The position numbers and the translations under genes were made by a program. Source: a virus. Taken from it: 24,634 bases of DNA. Position 1 is the stretch's first letter, and each line of letters begins with the position of its first letter. The DNA is taken from positions 1 to 24,634 of IMG/VR virus record IMGVR_UViG_3300011114_000517. One strand, 5' to 3'. This document shows positions 555 through 18,030 of the stretch, piece after piece. The notes beneath the pieces were generated by a model. That model had not been told where the DNA came from, did no database searches, and saw only the letters and a program-made list of their open reading frames with translations.

Positions 555-643
555 ACTTTCTCGAAATCACCGGCGCCGCCGCGTGCGCCGCAGCAACACT
601 AGCGGCATTTTGGGTATTTATCGTTTTGTTGTTCAGTATTTAA
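551..643 (+). CDS. 30-residue single-helix membrane peptide
   Basis: ATG 551-553 overlaps the previous stop (ATGA) and the frame closes at TAA 641-643. The product begins MNFLEITGAAACAAATLAAF and continues as WVFIVLLFSI, so nearly the whole peptide is one hydrophobic helix. A longer reading frame in another phase (from 583) covers the same DNA, but its real start is the ATG at 655. The overlap, the hydrophobic pattern and the way the stop falls directly before a strong ribosome site make this a plausible microprotein. Its role is unknown; small inner-membrane phage peptides sometimes act on host processes or on lysis. Confidence 0.5.
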   Translation: MNFLEITGAAACAAATLAAFWVFIVLLFSI

Positions 644-658
644 TCGGAGGATTTATGG
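643..658 (+). promoter_or_regulatory. Strong ribosome binding site deciding the start of the Sak4-like gene
   Basis: GGAGG at 646-650 lies four bases before ATG 655. It fixes the gene start at 655 rather than the upstream in-frame start at 583. The 16-base leader ATCGGAGGATTTATGG recurs with one change (ATCGGAGGATGTATGG) at 1959-1974, before the nuclease gene. Confidence 0.75.
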
Positions 659-1422
659 CTATAAATTTACAGGCAATATCCCGCAATACCACACTAGCGC
701 CTCCCCGCATCATGGTCTACGGCCCTCATGGGCTGGGCAAGACCACGTTCGGCGCCAGCGCCCCTAACCCGATCTTCATCCTGACCGAAGACGGGCTTGG
801 GCGCCTTGAGGTTGACCACTTCCCGGTCGCCAAGTCTTACAAAGATGTGCAGGAGGCACTGGCATCTCTCAAGGGAGAGCACGACTTCCAGACCGTCGTG
901 ATTGACTCGCTAGACTGGCTGGACAATCTGATATGGGAGCAAATCAACAGCCAATACGAGGCAAAAGACCTTGCATACGGCAAGGGAGCCGTGATTGCCG
1001 CGGATCTCTGGCGCAAAGTGCTGGAGGATCTGACCGCCTTGCGTGCTAAAGGTATGGCTAGCATCTTACTTGCACACTGCGAGATCAAGCGTTTCGACAG
1101 CCCTGAGGTTGAACCTTACGAAAGGTATCAACCCAAGCTGCAAGCGCGCAGCAGCGCCCTGGTGCAGGAATGGTGCGATATTGTGGGCTTCGCCAATTAC
1201 AAGACGATCGTCAAATCGTCAGACGTAGGCTTCAACAACAAAGTCAGCCGCGGCATATCGACCGGCGAACGCTTGTTATATACGTCGGAGAAGCCGGCCT
1301 ACCTTGCTAAGAACCGCTACAGCTTGCCCGATTCACTGCCGCTTGACTGGTCACAATTGGCAGACGCAATGATGACCACCGCAGCACCCGCAGTAAAAAA
1401 AACCCAACCTAAAGGAAAATAA
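655..1422 (+). CDS. Sak4-like RecA-fold ATPase (AAA_24), phage recombinase
   Basis: This 255-residue protein is a P-loop ATPase of the AAA_24/Sak4 type, which in phages acts as a single-strand annealing or strand-exchange protein with an SSB partner. Walker A is GPHGLGKTT (residues 23-31) with K29 as the nucleotide-binding lysine. Walker B is TVVIDS (80-85) with D84. A segment with ILLAHCEIKRFDSPE follows, then a C-terminal part ending in a basic tail (VKKTQPKGK). The start at 655 is chosen because GGAGG sits at 646-650; the frame is open back to 583 but that region overlaps the 30-residue peptide. The DUF669 gene follows after 2 bases and a nuclease gene after that, a typical phage recombination set. 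The family call is from motifs and neighbours. Confidence 0.85.
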   Translation: MAINLQAISRNTTLAPPRIMVYGPHGLGKTTFGASAPNPIFILTEDGLGRLEVDHFPVAKSYKDVQEALASLKGEHDFQTVVIDSLDWLDNLIWEQINSQYEAKDLAYGKGAVIAADLWRKVLEDLTALRAKGMASILLAHCEIKRFDSPEVEPYERYQPKLQARSSALVQEWCDIVGFANYKTIVKSSDVGFNNKVSRGISTGERLLYTSEKPAYLAKNRYSLPDSLPLDWSQLADAMMTTAAPAVKKTQPKGK

Positions 1423-1424
1423 TC

Positions 1425-1925
1425 ATGGCCTCTTTAAATTTTGACGCTTCAGCAGTAGAACCGCAACAGTCATTCGACGCCCTGCCGCCGGGACGTTACG
1501 AAGTCATCATTACGGATTCGGAGATGAAAGACACCAAAGCCGGAACCGGCCAGTATTTGCAGCTGACCTTCTCCGTCATTGATGGCCAGCACGACGGGCG
1601 CAAGCTCTGGTCTAGGCTTAACCTGGTCAACCCCAACGCAACCGCGGTGGGCATTGCCGAGCGCGAGCTGTCGGCCATCTGTCACTGCGTCGGCATCATC
1701 ACGCCGGCCGACTCCGAGGAGCTGCACGACCGCCCCCTCATCGTCGATGTGATTCAGGAGCTCAACCCGATGTCCGGGCAGCAGACCAATCGGATCAAGG
1801 GTTACGCACAGGCAGACGGATCGCCTGCGGCAAGCAAACCGGCGCCGAAAGCCAAACCTGCCGCACCGGCAGGCTTTGCGACCGGCAAGGTAGCATCAGC
1901 CGCACCCTGGGCAGCTCGCAAGTAA
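1425..1925 (+). CDS. DUF669 family protein, probable single-stranded DNA binding partner
   Basis: This is a 166-residue protein. The first two thirds match the DUF669 pattern: an N-terminal LNFDAS segment, then LPPGRYEVIITDSE, a central strand with QYLQLTFSVIDG and GRKLWSRLNL, and a later DRPLIVDVIQE strand. DUF669 proteins are found beside Sak4-type recombinases and have an OB-like, SSB-related role; binding single-stranded DNA is known for relatives and inferred here. The C-terminus (about 131-166) is low complexity, rich in Ala, Pro and Lys, ending AAPWAARK rather than the acidic tip of a classical SSB. ATG 1425 lies 2 bases after the ATPase stop, with AAAGGA at 1411-1416 as ribosome site. 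A strong hairpin follows the stop. Confidence 0.85.
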   Translation: MASLNFDASAVEPQQSFDALPPGRYEVIITDSEMKDTKAGTGQYLQLTFSVIDGQHDGRKLWSRLNLVNPNATAVGIAERELSAICHCVGIITPADSEELHDRPLIVDVIQELNPMSGQQTNRIKGYAQADGSPAASKPAPKAKPAAPAGFATGKVASAAPWAARK

Positions 1926-1932
1926 GTTAACC

Positions 1933-1956
1933 CGCTGGGGCGGCAACGCCCCGGCG
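1933..1956 (+). promoter_or_regulatory. Very stable RNA hairpin with GCAA tetraloop, upstream of the nuclease start
   Basis: Left arm CGCTGGGGCG (1933-1942) pairs with right arm CGCCCCGGCG (1947-1956): ten pairs, of which one is a T-G wobble at 1936/1953. The loop GCAA (1943-1946) is of the GNRA type. The right arm ends five bases before GGAGG (1962-1966), the ribosome site of the gene at 1971. No T-run follows, so it is not a standard intrinsic terminator. It may shield the transcript from decay, separate the expression of two genes, or be a site for a translational regulator; these roles are inference. Confidence 0.7.
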
Positions 1957-1970
1957 TCATCGGAGGATGT

Positions 1971-3092
1971 ATGGAACTGCCAGAACCGCAAAACAGCACC
2001 AGAACCGCTATTTTTAAGCATTACGAGCAGGCTGCCGACCGGCATGGACGCCCGCATCTTGGCGCCAGCGAGATAGGCCACGAGTGCGACCGCTACCTGT
2101 GGCTTAGTTTCAGATGGGCAAAACCGGCCGACTTTGACGGCAGGATGCTGCGCCTGTTTGACTCAGGCAACCACCAGGAACCGCGCCTGATTGCCGACCT
2201 GCGCGCGATAGGCGTCGAAGTGTGGGACAAGGATCAGGACGGCAAACAGTGGCGCTACAAAGCCGCTGGCGGGCATTTTGCTGGCAGTCTTGATGGCGTC
2301 GGGCTGGGCTTGCCGGAGGCGCCAAAGACGCCGCATTTGCTGGAATTTAAGACCGCAAACGGCAAGTCTTTTTCAGCCATGACAAAAAAAGGCGTAAAGG
2401 AATCCAAGCCGCAGCACTGGTTACAGATGCAAGTCTATATGGGCTGGGCTAGTCTGACTAGAGCCATGTATCTGATGGTCAACAAGGACACGGACGAGAT
2501 CCACGCCGAACGCATTGAATTCAACCAGGACGCATTCGACCAGGCAATCCAGCGTGCAGAGCGCGTCATCACAAGTCCCGAACCGGCCGTCACGATTGCT
2601 GACAGCGCAGCCGGGTTTACCTGCAAATTCTGCCGGTTTAAGGAACAATGCTACGGCACAGAAGCGCCCGCGGTGAGCTGCCGCACCTGCGCCCACAGCA
2701 CGCCGGAGATGGATGGGGACGGCCGCTGGTCATGCGCGCAGGGTAAACCCGACATGGACGTAGCCGCCCAGCGCGCCGGCTGCGGTGAACACCGGCACAT
2801 CCCAACCTTGCTAGGCAGGTTTGCCGAGTTAATGGACGCCAGCGCCAATAACCTGCTGACCTACCGCCACAAACTGACCGGCTTGGAATTCCAACAGCCG
2901 GTTTATACATCGCAAGACATAACCAACCTGGCCGACAAAACTATGCTGGGGGACGCCGGGCTGACTGCCATCAAAACTGAATTTGACTGCAACATAAAAG
3001 CCCCGGCAGCTGACCCATTTGCCGACATGATAGACGATCTGCCGTGGGAGAAAGCCGCTACAGCTAAACGTGCCAAAAAGGTGACGAAATGA
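1971..3092 (+). CDS. Cas4/RecB-like PD-(D/E)XK exonuclease with Fe-S cluster cysteines
   Basis: This 373-residue protein has the order of motifs of the Cas4/AddB-type nucleases. GASEIGHEC is near the N-terminus (C39), followed by GNHQEPR (66-72), SLDG with D108, LLEFKTA with E125 and K127, and QMQVYMG (152-158). CKFCRFKEQC (218-227) then gives C218, C221 and C227, which with C39 make the four ligands expected for a 4Fe-4S cluster. D108, E125 and K127 form the metal-dependent active site. A second cysteine group (C237, C240, C255, C271) is not part of the core fold. The gene starts at ATG 1971 behind GGAGG. It probably supplies the end-resecting activity for the neighbouring Sak4-like and DUF669 proteins. 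Activity is inferred from motifs. Confidence 0.85.
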   Translation: MELPEPQNSTRTAIFKHYEQAADRHGRPHLGASEIGHECDRYLWLSFRWAKPADFDGRMLRLFDSGNHQEPRLIADLRAIGVEVWDKDQDGKQWRYKAAGGHFAGSLDGVGLGLPEAPKTPHLLEFKTANGKSFSAMTKKGVKESKPQHWLQMQVYMGWASLTRAMYLMVNKDTDEIHAERIEFNQDAFDQAIQRAERVITSPEPAVTIADSAAGFTCKFCRFKEQCYGTEAPAVSCRTCAHSTPEMDGDGRWSCAQGKPDMDVAAQRAGCGEHRHIPTLLGRFAELMDASANNLLTYRHKLTGLEFQQPVYTSQDITNLADKTMLGDAGLTAIKTEFDCNIKAPAADPFADMIDDLPWEKAATAKRAKKVTK

Positions 3093-4014: not shown

Positions 4015-4166
4015 TTCAGACAAACGAAGAGAAAGTGAAAGCCGCTATCGCCTACCTGCGTAGCCGGGACAAATATCTGCTGGACGGTTGCAAGTGGGTT
4101 CCGACCCCGGCAGAAAAGACTGATGTTCGCCAGACGATGCAGCAGTATCGGGAGGCGATGAAATGA
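4011..4166 (+). CDS. Small helical protein (51 aa), unknown
   Basis: ATG 4011 is in the overlap with the previous stop and GGAG lies nearby upstream (3999-4002). The frame ends at TGA 4164-4166, overlapping the next start. The product contains EEKVKAAIAYLRSRDKYLLD, then CKWVPTPAEKTDVRQTM and a short basic end (YREAMK). It reads as a helix, a turn with Pro residues and a second helix. No family is recognised. Confidence 0.55.
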   Translation: MIQTNEEKVKAAIAYLRSRDKYLLDGCKWVPTPAEKTDVRQTMQQYREAMK

Positions 4167-4291
4167 AATTCGTCGATGTTGTGATGTTTGTTGCATTTTG
4201 CACCTCGCTTGCGTTCCTGTGGGGCGTGGTCGATGGGACGATACAGATGGCAACTGTTAAGCAATCCTTAACTGTTGGGTGCGGGAAATGA
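4163..4291 (+). CDS. 42-residue single-pass membrane peptide
   Basis: ATG 4163 overlaps the previous stop and the frame closes at TGA 4289-4291, overlapping the next start. GGGAGG lies just upstream (4150-4155). Residues about 4-24 (VDVVMFVAFCTSLAFLWGVV) form one hydrophobic helix, followed by a polar tail ending TVGCGK. It is too short for a classical holin with several helices. It could be a regulatory microprotein or a membrane-anchored accessory factor, but no function is supported by sequence. Confidence 0.55.
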   Translation: MKFVDVVMFVAFCTSLAFLWGVVDGTIQMATVKQSLTVGCGK

Positions 4292-4650
4292 AAGAGCGTA
4301 TCCAAATACTTGCTGAACAAGAGCGATTAACGGAAGCCGCAGTCCAACTCGCCATTGCGCGGGATGAGATTGTAGACCTTACTGAAGCCCTAACTAACAA
4401 GTATGCACTTGAAGCGGAGATGCAGGTCATGAGCGACAAGCTCACCTGCGCTTTGCTTGATGCAAAAGAAAATATGGAAATAGCCAATGAGTTTAAACGC
4501 TTGATGGAAGAGTATCGCCAGCGCGAGGCAGTGGCATACATAGCCTTGAGAGAAGCCGCAGGGTTGTTGTCCACGACGCCAAAGTTTTCGTGTGAGCATC
4601 CAGAATACATTATGGAATACTTGCTAAACGCACCACGGGAGAAGAAATGA
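4288..4650 (+). CDS. Coiled-coil protein (120 aa), unknown
   Basis: The start at 4288 is chosen because its ATG overlaps the previous stop; an in-frame ATG at 4279 lies inside the upstream gene. The product is almost wholly helical and rich in Glu, Ala and Leu, with heptad-like stretches (LTEAAVQLAIARDEIVDLTE, later ENMEIANEFKRLMEEYRQRE). The C-terminus changes to a short mixed segment with FSCEHPEYIMEYLL. Such proteins are common among small early phage genes and may oligomerise. No enzymatic motif is visible. The stop overlaps the next start as ATGA. Confidence 0.65.
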   Translation: MKERIQILAEQERLTEAAVQLAIARDEIVDLTEALTNKYALEAEMQVMSDKLTCALLDAKENMEIANEFKRLMEEYRQREAVAYIALREAAGLLSTTPKFSCEHPEYIMEYLLNAPREKK

Positions 4651-5021
4651 CAGATAAAGTAATGGTTGGAGTTACAGAGTATGGGGAAGGCATGGATGTA
4701 AAACTTGGGTATGACAAGGGCAGACCTGTGATTATTGCGTTCAACGAGGGTGGTTACGCCAGCACGTTTGTTGATTTAATTCAGTTGTTGTACTGGGTGC
4801 GTAACAATATGCCTGAGTTGCAAAAGGAGGACGCGATGACTAAAACGGCAGCAAATAAAGGCATACGAAATAAGATAAGCAAACGCGAAATGGAAATACT
4901 GGTTGAGTATCTGCTAGCGAATGTTGGTCAAAAGGATTTGGATCGTGTTTTAACTATTGTAAACGAACTGCGGGAGATGGACGCTAAAGAGCAATCAGGG
5001 CATAAAGAACCTGCGCCCTGA
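4647..5021 (+). CDS. Two-part small protein (124 aa) with an internal strong start
   Basis: ATG 4647 overlaps the previous stop. Residues 1-57 look like one unit with strands and a helix (KLGYDKGRPVIIAFNEGGYA, then LIQLLYWVRNNMPEL). Residues 64-124 form a separate helical unit (KREMEILVEYLLANVGQKDL). At the join, residue M64 (ATG 4836) has a near-perfect ribosome site, AAAAGGAGG, five bases upstream. The gene may therefore make a second 61-residue product, or may be a fusion of two once-separate small genes. It is the last gene of the plus-strand operon, and its last 27 bases overlap the end of the endolysin gene on the other strand. Function unknown. Confidence 0.65.
   Translation: MTDKVMVGVTEYGEGMDVKLGYDKGRPVIIAFNEGGYASTFVDLIQLLYWVRNNMPELQKEDAMTKTAANKGIRNKISKREMEILVEYLLANVGQKDLDRVLTIVNELREMDAKEQSGHKEPAP
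4824..4838 (+). promoter_or_regulatory. Internal ribosome binding site and possible second start
   Basis: AAGGAGG at 4824-4830 stands five bases before ATG 4836, in frame within the gene 4647-5021. It would give a 61-residue protein equal to the C-terminal half. It is the strongest ribosome-site match in this part of the operon. Confidence 0.5.
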
Positions 5022-11717: not shown

Positions 11718-12289
11718 GCGCTTACCTGCGTGACGGTAACAATGATTGAAGGAACAGCCGGAATAGATGGCGAAGTTTGCGCGGCATAGTATTGAATGGA
11801 AGTAGTAGCAATGCTCGTTGACCAGTAAAATTCTATGTAATCCGTTGCATTCAAGCTCAAAACATAATTAAGCGCAAATATAGTGTGACCGTTGTCCCCG
11901 CCATGCTTGGCTGGCACAGAAACCAAACTGGCGGTATTTGCTACGTTTGATCCGTTTTTCTGTATCCAAACATAAACGTCGGATACGGATGCCGCAGTAT
12001 TTTCCAACTGGATGCTGAACTGAAAGTTATAAACGCCGGTAGCTTGGCAAATAATTTGAGACGTTACGCTGCCCAAATAAATACCGTTTGATAAATCTGT
12101 TGTGTTTAGCGTTATTGCAGTCGGCGTATTAGCTACCGCCGTTTGAGATACCGTATCCGAAAATGCGCCGTAAAATACAGTTCGACCCAAACCTAGCAAA
12201 TAAAGCAACCATTCCCGCGTTGGCCTGTTGCTTGACGTATCAAGAAACGCGGAACGCGGGATGTTGATATTTGAGATGTTTGAAGCCAT
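11714..12289 (-). CDS. Jelly-roll (C1q/TNF-like) structural protein (191 aa)
   Basis: The N-terminus (1-35) is polar, with PTREWLLYLLGLGRTV. The remainder is a beta-sandwich pattern: TAVANTPTAITLNTTDLSNG, then GVYNFQFSIQLENT, SVSDVYVWIQKNGSNVANTA, the strand pair NYVLSLNATDYIEFYWST and the last strand SIIVTVTQV. This order resembles C1q/TNF-like domains found in phage receptor-binding or head-fibre proteins. It follows the gp10-like gene by a TAATG overlap and may be a neck fibre or adhesin. The family call rests on the strand pattern and is tentative. Confidence 0.5.
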   Translation of the reverse strand: MASNISNINIPRSAFLDTSSNRPTREWLLYLLGLGRTVFYGAFSDTVSQTAVANTPTAITLNTTDLSNGIYLGSVTSQIICQATGVYNFQFSIQLENTAASVSDVYVWIQKNGSNVANTASLVSVPAKHGGDNGHTIFALNYVLSLNATDYIEFYWSTSIATTSIQYYAAQTSPSIPAVPSIIVTVTQVSA

Positions 12290-14151
12290 TAATTTTTGCC
12301 CTGACTGGCTTTCAAGTTTGCAGAAATAATTACGGCTTTGATCGGATCGGTTACGGTTACTTCAAACACCCGATCCCGCGTCTGCCCAAGTCTGCGCCAG
12401 ATTGCGCGGTTCTTGTAAGAACCCGTTAGACCGATTGTTGTCCAGTGTTCGTTTGACCAAGTGCTGCCGCCATCGTCAGACCAGCGCAGCATTGCCTGCG
12501 GATCGTTTCCCTGCCCGGTAGAAAGCCCCACGCCGGGCTGGAACTGGATCTGCAATTCGTCAAAATACTGGCGCTGCAAGTCCGTCACAATGTGCGGAGC
12601 GCGTCTAAGGCGCTTAATTGGCTGCCCGTTGTCGGTGTAGTTGGTCTTGTCGAGCTTGTAGATGATGCCGTTTGCGTAGTCTCCGACCAGCACATGCCCT
12701 TGAAAGAGCGCAGCGCAGTTACCGCGGCAACGGTGATACTGGTTTAAGTTATCGTTATAAAGCCACTTGTGCCACATGGTCGTGGTTGCGTCATAGCACC
12801 AAGTCAGATCAATCGTCGGAAAGCTCACAACGTATATTTCATGGCCTTCTAACTGATAAGTCCACGCCACCGCATCCGTGATTGTTTGATCGACCAGCGT
12901 ATTTTCTACCGCGTGCGTGCTGATGCGGTTTGGCACATAACCATTCATCATCACAATTTCAGCTTGACCTCGGATGTTTTTAGACACGTAAGCAAACGAA
13001 TTGCCTACCCGCGCCATTGAGAAAGTTGCCGCTATTCCGTGTTGCGTCGAGGTTCCAGGTATTCGCTGGAACGCAAAAGGCACGCTGCCGGTATCGACCC
13101 AAACCTCCGAGCTATTCTCGCCCAGCAGATAGACTTCCCGATGATCGACGATCAGAGAAACCAGATTATCGGGAGCCCCGTCTTTGCTTGCAAAACTCAA
13201 CGGCTGAGTAATCGGAGACAAAAGCCCGCTGGCAGCCCATTGCTGCGTATTTGGCCGGTTATAGACAAAATAGTTGTCCACAATGTCGACCACGTTGGCG
13301 CCCGTAAAGGCTCCGTCAGTCGATGGAATAATCGTGTAATTTAGCCCGTAGAGCGTTCCAGAGATAAACGTCTGCGAGTTGTTGATGGTATACGTCCCAA
13401 CCCCACCAGTTCCCGTTCCTAGCGCCGTAATGATCGTGTTGGTAGTAACCCCCGCCCCGCGCACCGTCTGGCCAACATAGAGCGTTCCAGACGTTACCGC
13501 GGTCACGGTCAAAGTAGTTGTTGACATCGAGCCGGTCACCACCGCGCCCACCGTGGCAGAATTCATTAATTCACTTGCAATTGTCTGCGAATTGTTGACG
13601 GTATAAGTGCCGACCCCGCCCGTCCCGCTTACAAGCGCGGTAATTACGGTTTCAGCAGAAATTGACAAGCCAAACAACGCCTGGCTGATTGCTATTGTGC
13701 CGCTGGTCATTGCGGTGACGGTCAAAGTCGTGCCGGTAATTGACCCTGTGAAGACCGCCGCAGCCGGGCTGCTGATGCGCCAGGCATACCGGTAAGTTCC
13801 GTCGACAATATAGACATTCAGACCATTGTCCGTAATGCCGACAGATCCGGTGCTGGTGTTTAAAACCCCCACAATGGTCGGGACTAGGTTTGACGTTAAA
13901 GCATAAAGATAAGGACCGCCAACAGCGACGAGCTGCGCCCCGCCCGATACCGTTCGCATTCCTCGCACTTCCTGCGCGGTTTGCAATACAACTTGCGAAG
14001 TCAGACCCGGAGTCGGGTATAAAGCCACAACGCCGCGGTCACCGGGCTGCTTAAGCGGATCTATCTCAGGATAATAATTGATGCACTCTTGCGCGTCCTG
14101 ATAGATTGAAGGCGCTTCGTAGGATGGGCCGACAAAGCCGAAGTCAGGCAT
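12289..14151 (-). CDS. P22 gp10-like tail accessory (packaged DNA stabilisation) protein with a two-module insertion
   Basis: This 620-residue protein starts with FVGPSYEAPSIYQDAQECIN, a typical opening for gp10-like hub proteins that plug the portal tube with gp4. A beta-propeller-like pattern follows. Residues 134-193 and 205-264 are two tandem copies of a beta-rich module ([14 protein letters not shown] and VTGSMSTTTLTVTA) with no place in the usual family. Removing about 136 residues leaves a length close to the roughly 470 of P22 gp10. The core resumes with DGAFTGANVVDIVDNYFVYN and continues to RRLGQTRDRVFEVTVTDP near the end. The start shares a base with the gp4-like stop (TAATG). It works at the neck, between portal and tail tip. 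Confidence 0.85.
   Translation of the reverse strand: MPDFGFVGPSYEAPSIYQDAQECINYYPEIDPLKQPGDRGVVALYPTPGLTSQVVLQTAQEVRGMRTVSGGAQLVAVGGPYLYALTSNLVPTIVGVLNTSTGSVGITDNGLNVYIVDGTYRYAWRISSPAAAVFTGSITGTTLTVTAMTSGTIAISQALFGLSISAETVITALVSGTGGVGTYTVNNSQTIASELMNSATVGAVVTGSMSTTTLTVTAVTSGTLYVGQTVRGAGVTTNTIITALGTGTGGVGTYTINNSQTFISGTLYGLNYTIIPSTDGAFTGANVVDIVDNYFVYNRPNTQQWAASGLLSPITQPLSFASKDGAPDNLVSLIVDHREVYLLGENSSEVWVDTGSVPFAFQRIPGTSTQHGIAATFSMARVGNSFAYVSKNIRGQAEIVMMNGYVPNRISTHAVENTLVDQTITDAVAWTYQLEGHEIYVVSFPTIDLTWCYDATTTMWHKWLYNDNLNQYHRCRGNCAALFQGHVLVGDYANGIIYKLDKTNYTDNGQPIKRLRRAPHIVTDLQRQYFDELQIQFQPGVGLSTGQGNDPQAMLRWSDDGGSTWSNEHWTTIGLTGSYKNRAIWRRLGQTRDRVFEVTVTDPIKAVIISANLKASQGKN
13360..13539 (-). repeat. 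Beta-module copy B (second copy inside the gp10-like protein)
   Basis: Encodes residues 205-264, starting VTGSMSTTTLTVTA and ending GTGGVGTYTINNSQT. The same landmarks occur in the same order as in copy A with no gaps, 71 residues apart, so the pair is a tandem duplication. Confidence 0.8.
13573..13752 (-). repeat. Beta-module copy A (first copy inside the gp10-like protein)
   Basis: Encodes residues 134-193: [14 protein letters not shown] near the start and GTGGVGTYTVNNSQT near the end. It shares 13 exact bases (GCGGTGACGGTCA) with copy C at 14845-14857, and a 17-base stretch with one change with copy B. Confidence 0.8.
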
Positions 14152-15119
14152 TACCGGAAACCCCCGTACATAATCCAGCCAGCGTCTTTTTGTCGGCCTG
14201 TAATGATCGCGTCAGGATAGCTGGCAACCATCGGAGGTTTCATATTTGTGCGTTTTATGGTTGCTTTTGCTTGCGCTGCGTAGGCTGTAATCATGCCGAT
14301 CTGCGTCTGCGAGGCTTTCCCGTACATGGGCATCAGGCGCTCGGCCAAGCACCAGCGCAACGCCATGTTGTAGCCTTGCGGAAGCGCAAAAACGTCGTTC
14401 TGCGTCTGGTAGCTGCGAAAAATTGTATCCGTAAATATGTGCAGTTCGCCCTGTGCCGGAGCTGGCCAAACAAAGATATTGCCAAGAATCTCGGCAGGCT
14501 GGTAATAAATAGCTTTTGGCCACGGACCGCTTAGAGTTTTTAAACCGATCGAGTTGTATTGGTCAAAATTTAAAACAGCGACAGGATAATCAAGCCCGCC
14601 GCCAATTATCGGGTAACCACCGGAAGTCGTAGAAATGCGAACAAAGGCCGAGGTTAAAGTCAGCGGTCTCTGGTAATAAGCAGAAATCGTCGTGCTGGTC
14701 GCGGTTTGACTTGGCGTAATGGTATACGTTCCGACCTCGTTGACGTTGCCGCCAGCGCCGGTATTGAAGCCTACAATGGTCGTTCCGTCAGTGACTCCGG
14801 TTCCAGACAGCGTTTGACCGATAGCAATAGCGCCAGATCCAATGGCGGTGACGGTCAGCGTCGTGCCAGATATTGAGCCAGTAAAACTAGCGCCAATCTG
14901 CCCGCCCGGTCCGATTGTGTATTGAGTTTGATTCTGTGTAGTCGGGAAAATGATTTCGGTCTTGTAATAGACCATCATGTTTTCGTTTGACCACTGGTCA
15001 AGAATGTCGTTAAGCATGTCGAAAGCGTCTTGCGAGGCTTCAGGACTAGGCGTTTCGCCCGCCGCCAGCGCACCAATGTCTTTCAGTGCGCGGCTGATAA
15101 TATCAATCGGCATTGTCAT
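14151..15119 (-). CDS. P22 gp4-like tail accessory protein with one inserted beta-module
   Basis: Residues 1-72 have the gp4-like helical opening ([37 protein letters not shown]) and a strand ending QYTIGPGG. In relatives this strand is soon followed by a short link and RP-type residues; here residues 79-146 are a module ([18 protein letters not shown] to [17 protein letters not shown]), after which the core resumes as [13 protein letters not shown]. Later motifs include [36 protein letters not shown] and [17 protein letters not shown]. gp4 binds the portal and starts tail assembly. ATG 15119 has AAGGA six bases upstream; a second ATG two codons on is an alternative. Its stop overlaps the gp10-like start. 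Confidence 0.8.
14682..14885 (-). repeat. Beta-module copy C (inside the gp4-like protein)
   Basis: Encodes residues 79-146 of the gp4-like protein. It matches copies A and B through the TTLTVTA, SGxIAIxQ and GTYTI-SQT landmarks and has a four-residue insertion (NVNE) in the loop before GTYTI. Confidence 0.8.
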
Positions 15120-15403: not shown

Positions 15404-15746
15404 TCCACGCCTTTTTAGCTTCATCCCACTGATAAATTTTACCGTCCACAGGCATCGGCACAGGCGCTTCCCACTGGCAAGACTGCTCGCTCAAAACCCA
15501 CGACGGAAACGGTTGCGGAGCAATAAATGCGTCGCGACCTGAGTCGTAAGCGTAACCTATCCCTGCAAAGTTCTTTCGCATCTTGCCGTTGTAACTGGTC
15601 TGCTTCCAATCGCCGCCAAGCAGATGCTCGCAAAACGCAGCGCCGATAGATTCCATTTCAACGCCTTCAGCGGTTGCTGTGTCTGCGTTATCAACAACAA
15701 TCACCTGCGTGACTAGGCCGTTTTCTACTCTAGCAAAATGTGCCAT
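15384..15746 (-). CDS. Conserved small phage protein of the SYNGxxRKNxAGIGYxYD type
   Basis: This 120-residue protein has a pattern I recognise as widespread in aquatic phages: MAHFARVENGLVTQVIVVDN at the start, GGDWKQTSYNGKMRKNFAGI in the middle (44-63), then YAYDSGRDAFIAPQPFPSWV and CQWEAPVPMP. The function of the family is unknown to me; genes of this type usually stand beside tail-fibre genes. It begins in a TAATG overlap with the glycine-rich gene. The ending ([16 protein letters not shown]) overlaps the start of the next small protein. Confidence 0.7.
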   Translation of the reverse strand: MAHFARVENGLVTQVIVVDNADTATAEGVEMESIGAAFCEHLLGGDWKQTSYNGKMRKNFAGIGYAYDSGRDAFIAPQPFPSWVLSEQSCQWEAPVPMPVDGKIYQWDEAKKAWNVQLAN

Positions 15747-16597
15747 TAGAATGTAATGCTCCCAGACCCAGACCAGCTATAGACTCTGTAACCGCCAGCA
15801 ACGGTAATTGTCGGAGAACCCGTTGTAGATGCTGCCGCAGTAAAAGAATCTGCGTAGCGGATTATCACAATGCCGGAGCCGCCAGTGCCGCCCGTTGTGG
15901 TTTGTGAACCACCGCCACCGCCGCCCGTATTGGCAGTCCCGTTTGATCCTGACGTTGTGCCACCGTTACCGCCGCCACCTGTGCCGCCGTTGCCGGGTGT
16001 CGTGCTAAACGTGTTTGCACCAGAACCACCCCCGCCAGCATACGTTACTGATGAGCCACTAATACTGGACGCAGTTCCAACGCCGCCAGCGCCGTTTACA
16101 TTATTAGCGCCATTGCCGCCGACAGCGCTCGCGCCACCACCGCCGCCACCGGCATAGTTAGCCGTTCCGTATGCCGCCCCGCCGTTGTTACCTTGCCCGG
16201 CTGTGCCGTTGCCGCCCGTGTAATTAACGCCGCCAACAACAAGACCTTTGCCGCCACCGGAGCCGCCAGTGGTGGCCATATTTGCGTTAAAGTTTGCCGC
16301 ACCGCCGCCGCCGCCATCGCCTTTTACGGATGTGATTGTGGAAAACACAGAATCGTTACCTTGCGATGCATCAGCACCCGCAGCACCGCCAGCCCCGCCC
16401 GCACCGACAGTTACTGTAATTGGCGTCCCTGATGCCACTGCAAACCCGGTGGCCGTTCTGAAACCACCAGCGCCGCCACCGCCGCCGCTAGACCCGCCGC
16501 CGCCACCACCACCGCCAGCAACGACAAGGTATTCAACAGCCGTTGGCGCAGTTGGAGCCGCCGTTCCGGCAAGAAAGAAGTTTTTAGCAGCAAACAT
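15746..16597 (-). CDS. Glycine-rich tail tip/adhesin protein (Gly_rich_2-like)
   Basis: This 283-residue protein has a short N-terminal helix (MFAAKNFFLAG), the strand VEYLVVAGG, and then about 200 residues with long glycine runs broken by short polar or aromatic strands. The last 45 residues form a beta domain (GGSGIVIIRYADSF to GYRVYSWSGSGSITF). Glycine-rich tips of this kind can fold into polyglycine helix sandwiches that recognise cell-surface receptors, as in S16-type gp38 adhesins. The ATG at 16597 is chosen over a TTG at 16633 because it forms a TAATG overlap with the fibre stop. The proline-rich frames on the opposite strand are shadows of the glycine codons. Receptor binding is inferred. 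Confidence 0.75.
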   Translation of the reverse strand: MFAAKNFFLAGTAAPTAPTAVEYLVVAGGGGGGGGSSGGGGGAGGFRTATGFAVASGTPITVTVGAGGAGGAAGADASQGNDSVFSTITSVKGDGGGGGAANFNANMATTGGSGGGKGLVVGGVNYTGGNGTAGQGNNGGAAYGTANYAGGGGGGASAVGGNGANNVNGAGGVGTASSISGSSVTYAGGGGSGANTFSTTPGNGGTGGGGNGGTTSGSNGTANTGGGGGGSQTTTGGTGGSGIVIIRYADSFTAAASTTGSPTITVAGGYRVYSWSGSGSITF

Positions 16598-18030
16598 TAT
16601 GGTGTGTAACCTTGGGCGATTGAACCATACCAATTTGTGCCATCAGCAATGAATGTCAGAATATCCATCTTGCCAGCGGCGGCGGTAATCGTAGGCGCTC
16701 CAGCAGTTCCCCATTTAACTGATGTAAATGTTGCCGTTCCGTTGCCGGTAGCCGCCGCTTGTTTAAGCAAGAGCACAAAGGATTTACCTGCGGTTGCTGT
16801 GGGCATGGTAAACGCGCAGGCCGTGGATGCGGTTAAAGTAGCGGTCTGAACTGTGCCGGATGTAAGCGACAAAGTCGATGAACTTGTTACCGTTCCAATC
16901 GCGACCACAGATTCGACGTAATTGGTTACGGTCGGATTGTTAACGGTTGGGCTAGTATCCAGCACCATCTTGCCTGTGCCGGTGACCGCGTTTGTCAGCG
17001 TCACGCCGCCGTAGGTAATAGCGCCAGTTGCGCTCAGAGTAGTAAATGCTCCAGCCGCTGGCGTAGTGGCTCCCACTGTGCCGTTAAAAGCGCCCGCAAA
17101 ACTTGTTGCAGTTAATATCCCGGTGCTAGGGTTAAAGCTCAGCTTTGTTGAGCTAGTGTTGTTGCCGGTAATTGTGCCAGTTGTTGCGCTGGTGAATAAT
17201 GGATACCTGGTTGCGTTCGTTGTCGTGTCGTCTGTGACCGTAATTCCGGCAAACGGCGTAGTCCAGGTTGGAGTCCCGGCAGTTGCAGATGTAAGAACCT
17301 GACCCGTAGTTCCAGCCGCGGTAAATGCGTATGCAGTGCCAGTTCCGTAAGGAACAGCGCCTGCAACTGGTGTAGACGTTCCAGCAGTGCCGCCTAAATT
17401 GATTGCAACCGGGTTTGTCAGGCTGAATACAGATCCAACTAGGGTTAGCCCGGTTCCTGCCGTGTAAGAAGTGCCGCCGCTAAACTGCGTGAAATTTATG
17501 GCAGTAACGCCAATCGTGCCGCCAGCGTTGCTAGTGCAGACCCAGCCGGTGTCGGCAAGCGTGGTTCCGGTTTCAATGAAGGTAAACGCACCCGGCACTT
17601 GCGCCCAGGTATTCATGTCATCGGATCTTGCCCATGCGCTGGCAGAAACAACATAAATGCCGTTATCCGCAGCCGCTGTTTGATTTTTTACCAGACAACG
17701 ATCACCAGCGACAAGCGCGATACCGTCTACAGTCTGCGTGCCTGACAGTGTGATGTTTGCCGTTGTGCTGGCAACCACAGACGCCTTGATATCCAGCCCC
17801 TGCGCTACCGCGTCGACATACGCTTTATTGGTGATATCTAGCGGATTGACAGGCGTTGCGGCTATCGTGCCGCTTGTCAGCGTAGCAACGCCAGAAATAG
17901 GCGCAGAGAAATAATCGCCAGCAGGACCGACAAACGTCACTATCGAATGATACTGGTCGAAGATGCCCTGAACGGGCACGATGTTAATGGTCGTTGTCAG
18001 CGCGGTGCTGTTGCTGTTGGTCGTACTCAT
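16597..18030 (-). CDS. Tail fibre protein (477 aa)
   Basis: Residues 65-82 hold DITNKAYVDAVAQGLDIK, and residues 99-125 the segment with VAGDRCLVKNQT and NGIYVV, a common fibre-shaft pattern. Many Ala/Thr/Gly-rich beta repeats follow (GTTGQVLTSATAGTPTW, TGITLTATSF-like turns, GTGKMVLDTSPTVNNPTVTN). The C-terminus (KMDILTFIADGTNWYGSIAQ) resembles fibre ends where chaperone or tip domains attach. The gene lies between a small beta-rich protein and the glycine-rich tip candidate, so the pair may form a fibre and its tip. AAAGGG precedes the ATG by eight bases. Confidence 0.8.
   Translation of the reverse strand: MSTTNSNSTALTTTINIVPVQGIFDQYHSIVTFVGPAGDYFSAPISGVATLTSGTIAATPVNPLDITNKAYVDAVAQGLDIKASVVASTTANITLSGTQTVDGIALVAGDRCLVKNQTAAADNGIYVVSASAWARSDDMNTWAQVPGAFTFIETGTTLADTGWVCTSNAGGTIGVTAINFTQFSGGTSYTAGTGLTLVGSVFSLTNPVAINLGGTAGTSTPVAGAVPYGTGTAYAFTAAGTTGQVLTSATAGTPTWTTPFAGITVTDDTTTNATRYPLFTSATTGTITGNNTSSTKLSFNPSTGILTATSFAGAFNGTVGATTPAAGAFTTLSATGAITYGGVTLTNAVTGTGKMVLDTSPTVNNPTVTNYVESVVAIGTVTSSSTLSLTSGTVQTATLTASTACAFTMPTATAGKSFVLLLKQAAATGNGTATFTSVKWGTAGAPTITAAAGKMDILTFIADGTNWYGSIAQGYTP

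What the first reader, a model, noticed from the sequence alone, without database searches (positions are those of the whole stretch)
13360..14885. One beta-module found three times in two adjacent neck proteins
The sequence shows a 60 to 68 residue module (landmarks [14 protein letters not shown] and VGTYTIxxSQT) twice in the gp10-like protein and once in the gp4-like protein. In both, well-known family segments continue on either side, so the module is an insertion in a surface loop. gp4 and gp10 touch each other in P22-type necks, so the modules may lie side by side on the virion. The DNA copies are diverged but still share short exact strings. A mobile domain with an unknown binding role is the most striking feature here. 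I recall similar strings in other phage structural proteins but cannot run a search.
Basis: partly seen in the sequence, partly recalled or inferred. Interest (0 to 1): 0.78.

Follow-up and report, generated by a model that had tools for sequence, protein, structure and literature searches.

The report
Mobile beta-barrel grafted into phage tails
Two adjoining tail proteins of an uncultured short-tailed phage carry three copies of a small, independently folding, still unnamed barrel-shaped domain that phages have grafted into many unrelated virion proteins, most likely as an outward contact surface.

Summary
A ~65-residue module occurs twice in the P22-gp10-like nozzle protein (residues 132-196, 203-267) and once in the gp4-like adaptor (77-145). 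Copies are 55-61% identical, Z 15-21 over shuffles, and long diverged at DNA level.

Relatives lack it cleanly: gp10s 60-65% identical have an uninterrupted hairpin there, and large inserts recur at one site in gp4 and two in gp10. Tree mapping needs one change per gene. All 327 nearest neighbours share position, so copies are now inherited in place. dN/dS is 0.08-0.13, near the cores.

The module alone is predicted as a compact all-beta domain (pLDDT 92.7) resembling EF-Tu-domain-II/FCCH-type barrels; the best PDB hit is a 124-residue chain of phage Bridgette. No Pfam, NCBIfam or PDB-sequence entry covers it, yet it sits in about 30 clusters of other proteins: tail sheath, terminator, cement, capsid, baseplate, fibres, tailspikes, bacterial giants.

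The gp10 site matches, by blade count, the propeller blade from which T7's nozzle tip hangs, so gp10 modules probably project at the distal tail and are not beside the gp4 modules. Function (weak multivalent adhesion favoured) is inferred.

The parts
12289..14151 (-). gp10-like nozzle / packaged-DNA stabilisation protein (620 aa) carrying two modules
   Evidence: Pfam Phage_stabilise E 9e-7; phrog_578 Hc3 E 2e-105; AF2 model pLDDT 90.3; VIA Z 38.3 to P22 gp10 8eap_D, 444 residues aligned
13564..13758 (-). module gp10a (gp10 residues 132-196)
   Evidence: E 1.5e-27
13351..13545 (-). module gp10b (gp10 residues 203-267)
   Evidence: E 1.6e-25; AF2 of this module alone (71-residue construct) pLDDT 92.7
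14151..15119 (-). gp4-like head-tail adaptor (322 aa) carrying one module
   Evidence: Pfam SU10_adaptor 31.2 bits, cut-off 27; phrog_12985 and phrog_637 adaptor Ad3
14685..14891 (-). module in gp4 (residues 77-145)
   Evidence: E 1.9e-25
13765..13791 (-). gp10 host strand before the insert (residues 121-129); with residues 272-275 it forms the hairpin that module-less relatives keep closed
   Evidence: alignment with 10 other phages; strands E121-125 and E272-275 in the model; equivalent to P22 gp10 about Y117-T120

Best explanation
The repeated segment is a self-contained, about 65-residue beta-barrel-like domain (EF-Tu domain II / FCCH / RIFT-like arrangement) that phages have repeatedly grafted into virion proteins, here into beta-hairpins of the adaptor and nozzle. 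Shown here: its separateness, its wide spread over unrelated virion proteins, its absence at the same site in relatives, one change per site on the lineage tree, and purifying selection. Inferred: with P22 stoichiometry (12 gp4, 6 gp10) this virion would display 24 copies, 12 on the adaptor's fibre-dock-like region and 12 as six two-domain arms on the blade-3 hairpin of the nozzle, near where the T7 nozzle tip and the SU10 nozzle domains are attached. Most likely role: an accessory contact surface that binds weakly but many-fold to something conserved outside the virion (cell-surface or extracellular polymer), the gp10 arms doing so at the tail tip. It is not a hypervariable receptor-specificity domain.
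For: Separate fold: AF2 of one module alone, pLDDT 92.7, pTM 0.77; both copies are high-confidence beta units in full gp10. Insertion: gp10 of ctn9Y15 and cta1H496 (65% and 60% identical) has a few residues where the window has ~140; in 298 gp10 and 296 gp4 proteins, inserts of 25 aa or more recur at two sites in gp10 and one in gp4. Single change: gp10-module rows (134 of 319) split off on one branch, support 99; gp4 modules also need 1 change. Promiscuity: 61 distinct further host proteins in 30 clusters after masking the module, including tail sheath DUF3383 and terminator in one phage (L372), cement protein, baseplate wedge, collar fibre, LamG, pectate-lyase tailspike, Phage_capsid_4, Baseplate_J; BFVD has it in an HK97-type capsid protein, Stf, P22 Gp10 and tip attachment protein J. 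Selection: dN/dS 0.12, 0.13, 0.08 for gp10a, gp10b, gp4 copy against 0.09 and 0.07 for cores. Site: P22 gp10 hairpin ~117-120; a blade-3 loop leads to the T7 nozzle tip (PMC6702177); SU10 nozzle domains between blades 2 and 3 (PMC9509320).
Against: No binding was shown and no ligand is known. The fold match is below Z 8 (best 7.7), so the fold name is a resemblance. The blade count was made from DSSP strands, without coordinates or a complex; the sequence comparisons with T7 and SU10 proteins were not significant. The low, core-like dN/dS also fits a purely structural contact.
Confidence: 0.5

Rival explanations
1. Architectural role: the gp10 modules are a nozzle tip or extension and the gp4 module a fibre-dock extension. 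They hold fibres, needle or neighbouring subunits, or straighten at ejection as SU10's Ig-like nozzle domains do, and bind nothing outside the virion.
For: Same region of the propeller as the T7 nozzle tip and SU10 nozzle domains; tandem chains of 2-4 domains at the gp10 site; slow evolution like the cores; no loss seen within the clade. The best PDB relative is a 124-residue chain of phage Bridgette, a phage described as having dimeric capsid cement proteins (PMC13033339); whether that chain is the cement protein was not checked.
Against: The same module sits on sheath, terminator, capsid, fibres, tailspikes and bacterial giant proteins, which share no virion neighbour. P22, Sf6 and the module-less relatives work without it.
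Confidence: 0.3
2. Tolerated passenger: a domain that is easily inserted into hairpins, kept by chance and with no function.
For: Very wide host-protein range; copies in giant bacterial proteins as well.
Against: dN/dS about 0.1; no loss in 134 gp10-module genomes that form one clade; insert sites are few and fixed.
Confidence: 0.12
3. Receptor-specificity domain that sets host range, like a tail-fibre tip.
For: Also found in tail fibres and tailspikes, including cultured Sinorhizobium phages phiLM21 and phi3LM21.
Against: Not hypervariable: same-position identity between phages is 63-70%, close to the cores at 70-74%, and dN/dS is low. Many hosts are not receptor-binding proteins (sheath, cement, terminator, capsid).
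Confidence: 0.08

Closest known systems
Ig-like domains of tailed phages (Fraser et al. 2006, cited in PMC10684548; tail-sheath additional domains, PMC9230969)
   Same: Small beta domains inserted or appended in many unrelated virion proteins, exchanged between phages, suggested to help adhesion weakly
   Different: Sequence family and predicted fold differ: EF-Tu-II-like barrels are the top fold matches, no Ig-family Pfam match above cut-off; here the insertion is in a P22-type nozzle and adaptor
124-residue chain 1 of PDB 8eci (Arthrobacter phage Bridgette)
   Same: Best Foldseek PDB hit, probability 1.00, TMq 0.75, 31% identity over 70 columns; VIA Z 7.2
   Different: A short separate virion chain rather than a domain inserted in a tail protein; Foldseek E 0.025 only; molecule identity not verified here
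Insertion domain of LKA1 tailspike gp49 (residues 284-370; PMC5701251)
   Same: Six-stranded beta-barrel interrupting another fold in a phage tail protein; VIA Z 5.8 over 62 residues
   Different: 16% identity; reported to deepen the substrate groove of the beta-helix, with no counterpart in gp4 or gp10
SU10 nozzle domains and T7 nozzle tip (PMC9509320, PMC6702177)
   Same: Extra domains attached to the nozzle propeller at blade 3 (T7) or between blades 2 and 3 (SU10); 4 in tandem in SU10, 2-4 here
   Different: SU10 domains are described as Ig-like and the T7 tip is a different beta-barrel; no significant sequence similarity
RIFT-related domains shared by tail and neck proteins (ECOD-based survey, PMC10684548)
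   Same: The survey states that RIFT-related domains occur in many structural proteins such as tail and neck proteins
   Different: It names a broad fold group; the passages read do not single out this sequence family or its gp4/gp10 insertion

Membership tests
P22 gp10-type nozzle protein (Pfam Phage_stabilise) | Family sequence profile and propeller/platform fold | tested here: met
   28.3 bits, cut-off 25; phrog_578 2e-105; VIA Z 38.3 to 8eap_D
Podovirus head-tail adaptor (SU10_adaptor / P22 gp4) | Family sequence profile | tested here: met
   SU10_adaptor 31.2 bits, cut-off 27; helix segments of the family match P22 and Sf6 adaptors
Podovirus head-tail adaptor with fibre-dock domain (T7/SU10 type) | Beta fibre-dock domain between the helices, absent in P22 and Sf6 | tested here: inconclusive
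   The segment missing from P22/Sf6 adaptors is present, but the direct profile comparison with T7 and SU10 adaptors was not significant
Ig-like domains of phages | Match to an Ig-family profile | tested here: not met
   123 module copies against Pfam: one Ig-family match at E 0.35 in one member only
Ig-like domains of phages | Ig beta-sandwich fold | tested here: inconclusive
   Top fold matches are barrels; absence from that list does not exclude the Ig fold
EF-Tu domain II / translation-protein (RIFT-like) barrel | Barrel topology covering the whole domain | tested here: inconclusive
   Many EF-Tu/eEF1A/IF2-type chains at Z 6-7.7, 66-70 of 71 residues, 2.2-2.7 A; Z under 8
E1 FCCH domain (Pfam E1_FCCH) | Pfam profile match | tested here: not met
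   No E1_FCCH among the listed Pfam families for 123 members; fold resemblance to Uba1 178-257, Z 6.2
Weak surface-adhesion domain | Binding to cells or glycans | not testable with these tools
   No experiment available

The most novel reading that the evidence does not exclude
A single unnamed barrel family works as a phage-wide surface graft. In this lineage a P22-type phage has built a T7/SU10-like nozzle tip out of it (2-4 barrels in a row at the propeller blade-3 hairpin) after first acquiring it on the adaptor, which would be a convergent construction of a tail tip from an unrelated, exchangeable part.
Probability: 0.3. Interest if true: 0.65.

Novelty: new variant of a known kind. Interest (0 to 1): 0.5.

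Why it matters
The domain is common in environmental phages but has no Pfam or NCBIfam name, and routine BLAST with low-complexity filtering found nothing with it. Naming it would annotate parts of many 'unknown' virion proteins. The gp4/gp10 case gives occupied and empty versions of the same site in related phages, and cultured phages with the module exist, so the old question of what promiscuous virion surface domains do becomes testable.

Tried and rejected
tblastn of the tandem modules against the phage collection gave nothing; this is probably due to BLAST's low-complexity filter, since a less biased copy found phiLM21. Sequence search of PDB with modules: no credible hit. Profile comparison of gp4/gp10 with T7 and SU10 adaptor/nozzle: not significant. 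Recent tandem duplication or gene conversion between copies: rejected, since same-genome pairs are hardly more alike than cross-genome pairs (0.546 v 0.536; 0.526 v 0.521; 0.502 v 0.496) and 327/327 nearest neighbours are same-position. Chance similarity from T/G/S-rich composition: rejected by shuffles. Hypervariable, host-specificity-type evolution: rejected by identity and dN/dS. E1_FCCH membership (a recollection): no profile match. A first dN/dS script failed on an empty core and was rerun.

Full report
What the sequence shows. The window is a 24,634-base linear virus record from IMG/VR with P22-type morphogenesis genes: terminase, portal, scaffold, coat, adaptor gp4 and nozzle gp10. The three repeats are gp10 residues 132-196 and 203-267 and gp4 residues 77-145, at window 13564-13758, 13351-13545 and 14685-14891, minus strand. 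They show 36-38 identities over 62-69 aligned columns, 15-21 SD above composition-preserving shuffles. A family profile gives E 1e-25 to 1e-27 for each and finds no fourth copy in the window. At DNA level they are old: only 39% of third positions agree at residues shared by the two gp10 copies, and the longest shared strings are 11-13 nt.

It is an insertion. In ctn9Y15 (MW202674) and cta1H496 (MW202520), whose gp10s are 65% and 60% identical to the window's, and in eight more distant phages, the gp10 hairpin that holds ~140 extra residues in the window is closed by a few residues. The gp4 of the two close phages has the module, that of seven of the others does not, and Xanthomonas phage PBR31 has a different, only weakly similar insert at the same gp4 loop. 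Across 298 gp10 and 296 gp4 proteins from related loci, inserts of 25 residues or more recur at the module site and one other site in gp10, and at the module site in gp4 (one 29-residue exception elsewhere). On a 319-row gp10-core tree, gp10-module genomes (134) split off on one branch with support 99, and gp4-module presence also needs one change; every gp10-module genome whose gp4 could be read over the site has the gp4 module (the seven without are loci with no gp4 or, for L088, a fragment). The usual states are 2+1, 0+1 and 0+0 (gp10 + gp4); 3-4 in gp10 and 2 in gp4 also occur. Direction (gain) is inferred from the module-less state of P22, Sf6, Pam1 and other distant relatives. The sets are capped best-80 lists, so the counts are not frequencies.

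The copies are now inherited in place. Over 109 genomes with the 2+1 layout, all 327 modules have their nearest neighbour at the same position of another genome, and same-genome pairs are hardly more alike than cross-genome pairs. dN/dS is 0.12, 0.13 and 0.08 for gp10a, gp10b and the gp4 copy against 0.09 and 0.07 for the cores. The modules are therefore under purifying selection and are not hypervariable.

It is a domain of its own. AF2 of one module with 100 sequences in the alignment gave pLDDT 92.7 and pTM 0.77, all beta. In PDB the best Foldseek hit is a 124-residue chain of Arthrobacter phage Bridgette (E 0.025, probability 1.00, 31% identity). VIA-align ranks it with EF-Tu/eEF1A domain-II-type barrels (Z up to 7.7, 66-70 of 71 residues), a region of a phage tail tube protein (Z 6.4), the E1 FCCH region (Z 6.2) and the LKA1 tailspike insertion domain (Z 5.8). 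Z below 8 means resemblance only. No Pfam or NCBIfam model names it and no PDB sequence matches credibly; two PHROGs contain it (phrog_21413, phrog_38233).

It is promiscuous. After masking the module, 61 distinct further host proteins fall into 30 clusters. Those that can be named in viral contigs and prophage-like loci are virion parts: tail sheath (DUF3383) and tail terminator in the same phage L372, cement/minor capsid protein, baseplate wedge, Baseplate_J, tail collar and tail fibres, LamG and pectate-lyase-type proteins, a Phage_capsid_4 protein. BFVD adds an HK97-type capsid protein, Stf, P22 Gp10 and tip attachment protein J. The terminators show an occupied and an empty site within one family: L372 has two modules, and L431 has one, at L372's second site. 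Cultured examples are the tail fibres of Sinorhizobium phages phiLM21 and phi3LM21 (E about 1e-22). Giant proteins of some Bacteroidota assemblies carry it too.

Where it sits. The gp10 model (pLDDT 90.3) aligns 444 residues with P22 gp10 at Z 38.3; the insert maps to the P22 gp10 hairpin near residues 117-120. By my strand count it lies between the third and fourth strands of blade 3 if the velcro-closed blade is blade 1. In T7 a loop of blade 3 leads to the distal nozzle tip (PMC6702177), and in SU10 four Ig-like nozzle domains are inserted between blades 2 and 3 and straighten at ejection (PMC9509320). In gp4 the module interrupts the segment that P22 and Sf6 adaptors lack; T7 and SU10 adaptors have their fibre-dock domain there. 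Direct profile comparisons with T7 and SU10 were not significant, so these are positional analogies. They suggest that the gp10 and gp4 modules are not neighbours on the virion.

Mechanism. With P22 copy numbers (12 gp4, 6 gp10; established knowledge) there would be 24 modules per tail. The shared feature of the nameable host proteins is that they are particle components likely to be exposed, with no common virion neighbour, so I favour a weak multivalent contact with something conserved outside the virion (about 0.5 for the whole statement), with an architectural nozzle/dock role next (0.3), a passenger (0.12) and a host-range determinant (0.08) behind.

Known or new. Promiscuous beta domains on virions are known: Ig-like domains (Fraser 2006, cited in PMC10684548), sheath additional domains (PMC9230969), RIFT-related domains in tail and neck proteins (PMC10684548), and the LKA1 insertion domain (PMC5701251). 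What this adds is an unnamed family with its own profile, its wide host-protein list, and a clear insertion history in gp4 and gp10 at a site tied by analogy to the nozzle tip.

Noticed in passing
L008 gp4 (locus 4045-4998): Xanthomonas phage PBR31 carries a different ~70-residue insert at exactly the same gp4 loop, with a weak match to the module profile (GDISGAGIPAGATVTAI): possibly a sister module type using the same graft site.
   Followed up: partly
gp10 family, profile position 397 (for example L005 8001-9587): Second insertion hot spot in gp10: 106 of 298 proteins carry an insert of 25-68 residues in the C-terminal region, away from the module site.
   Followed up: no
L125 1425-3563, L140 5743-7878, L099 6354-8498: Some gp10s have ~220-residue inserts at the module site with a weakly matching third unit, suggesting a further diverged or different domain in the chain.
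   Followed up: no
L420 2785-9837, L422 5194-12201, L428 1-11769: Very large (2,300-3,900 aa) open frames in Bacteroidota assemblies carry the module: possible bacterial surface proteins sharing the domain with phages.
   Followed up: no
BFVD A0A1V0SCQ2 and A0A1V0SDM6 (Indivirus ILV1): Collagen-repeat proteins of a giant virus contain the same predicted domain (TMq 0.92 and 0.87), outside tailed phages.
   Followed up: no
window 16597-18030: A 477-aa protein between coat and gp4 genes whose residues ~65-205 match many different head and tail PHROGs: perhaps another shared virion module.
   Followed up: no
window 15746-16633: Glycine-rich (Gly_rich_2) 295-aa protein, likely a virion surface or fibre component.
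   Followed up: no
window 583-3092 (+): Recombination block: Sak4-like annealing protein, SSB and Cas4-domain exonuclease in a row.
   Followed up: no
L004 6382-7365 (MW202674.1) and L005 7023-7991 (MW202520.1): Their gp4-like adaptors are annotated 'portal protein' in the public records, although they align end to end with the window's adaptor.
   Followed up: no
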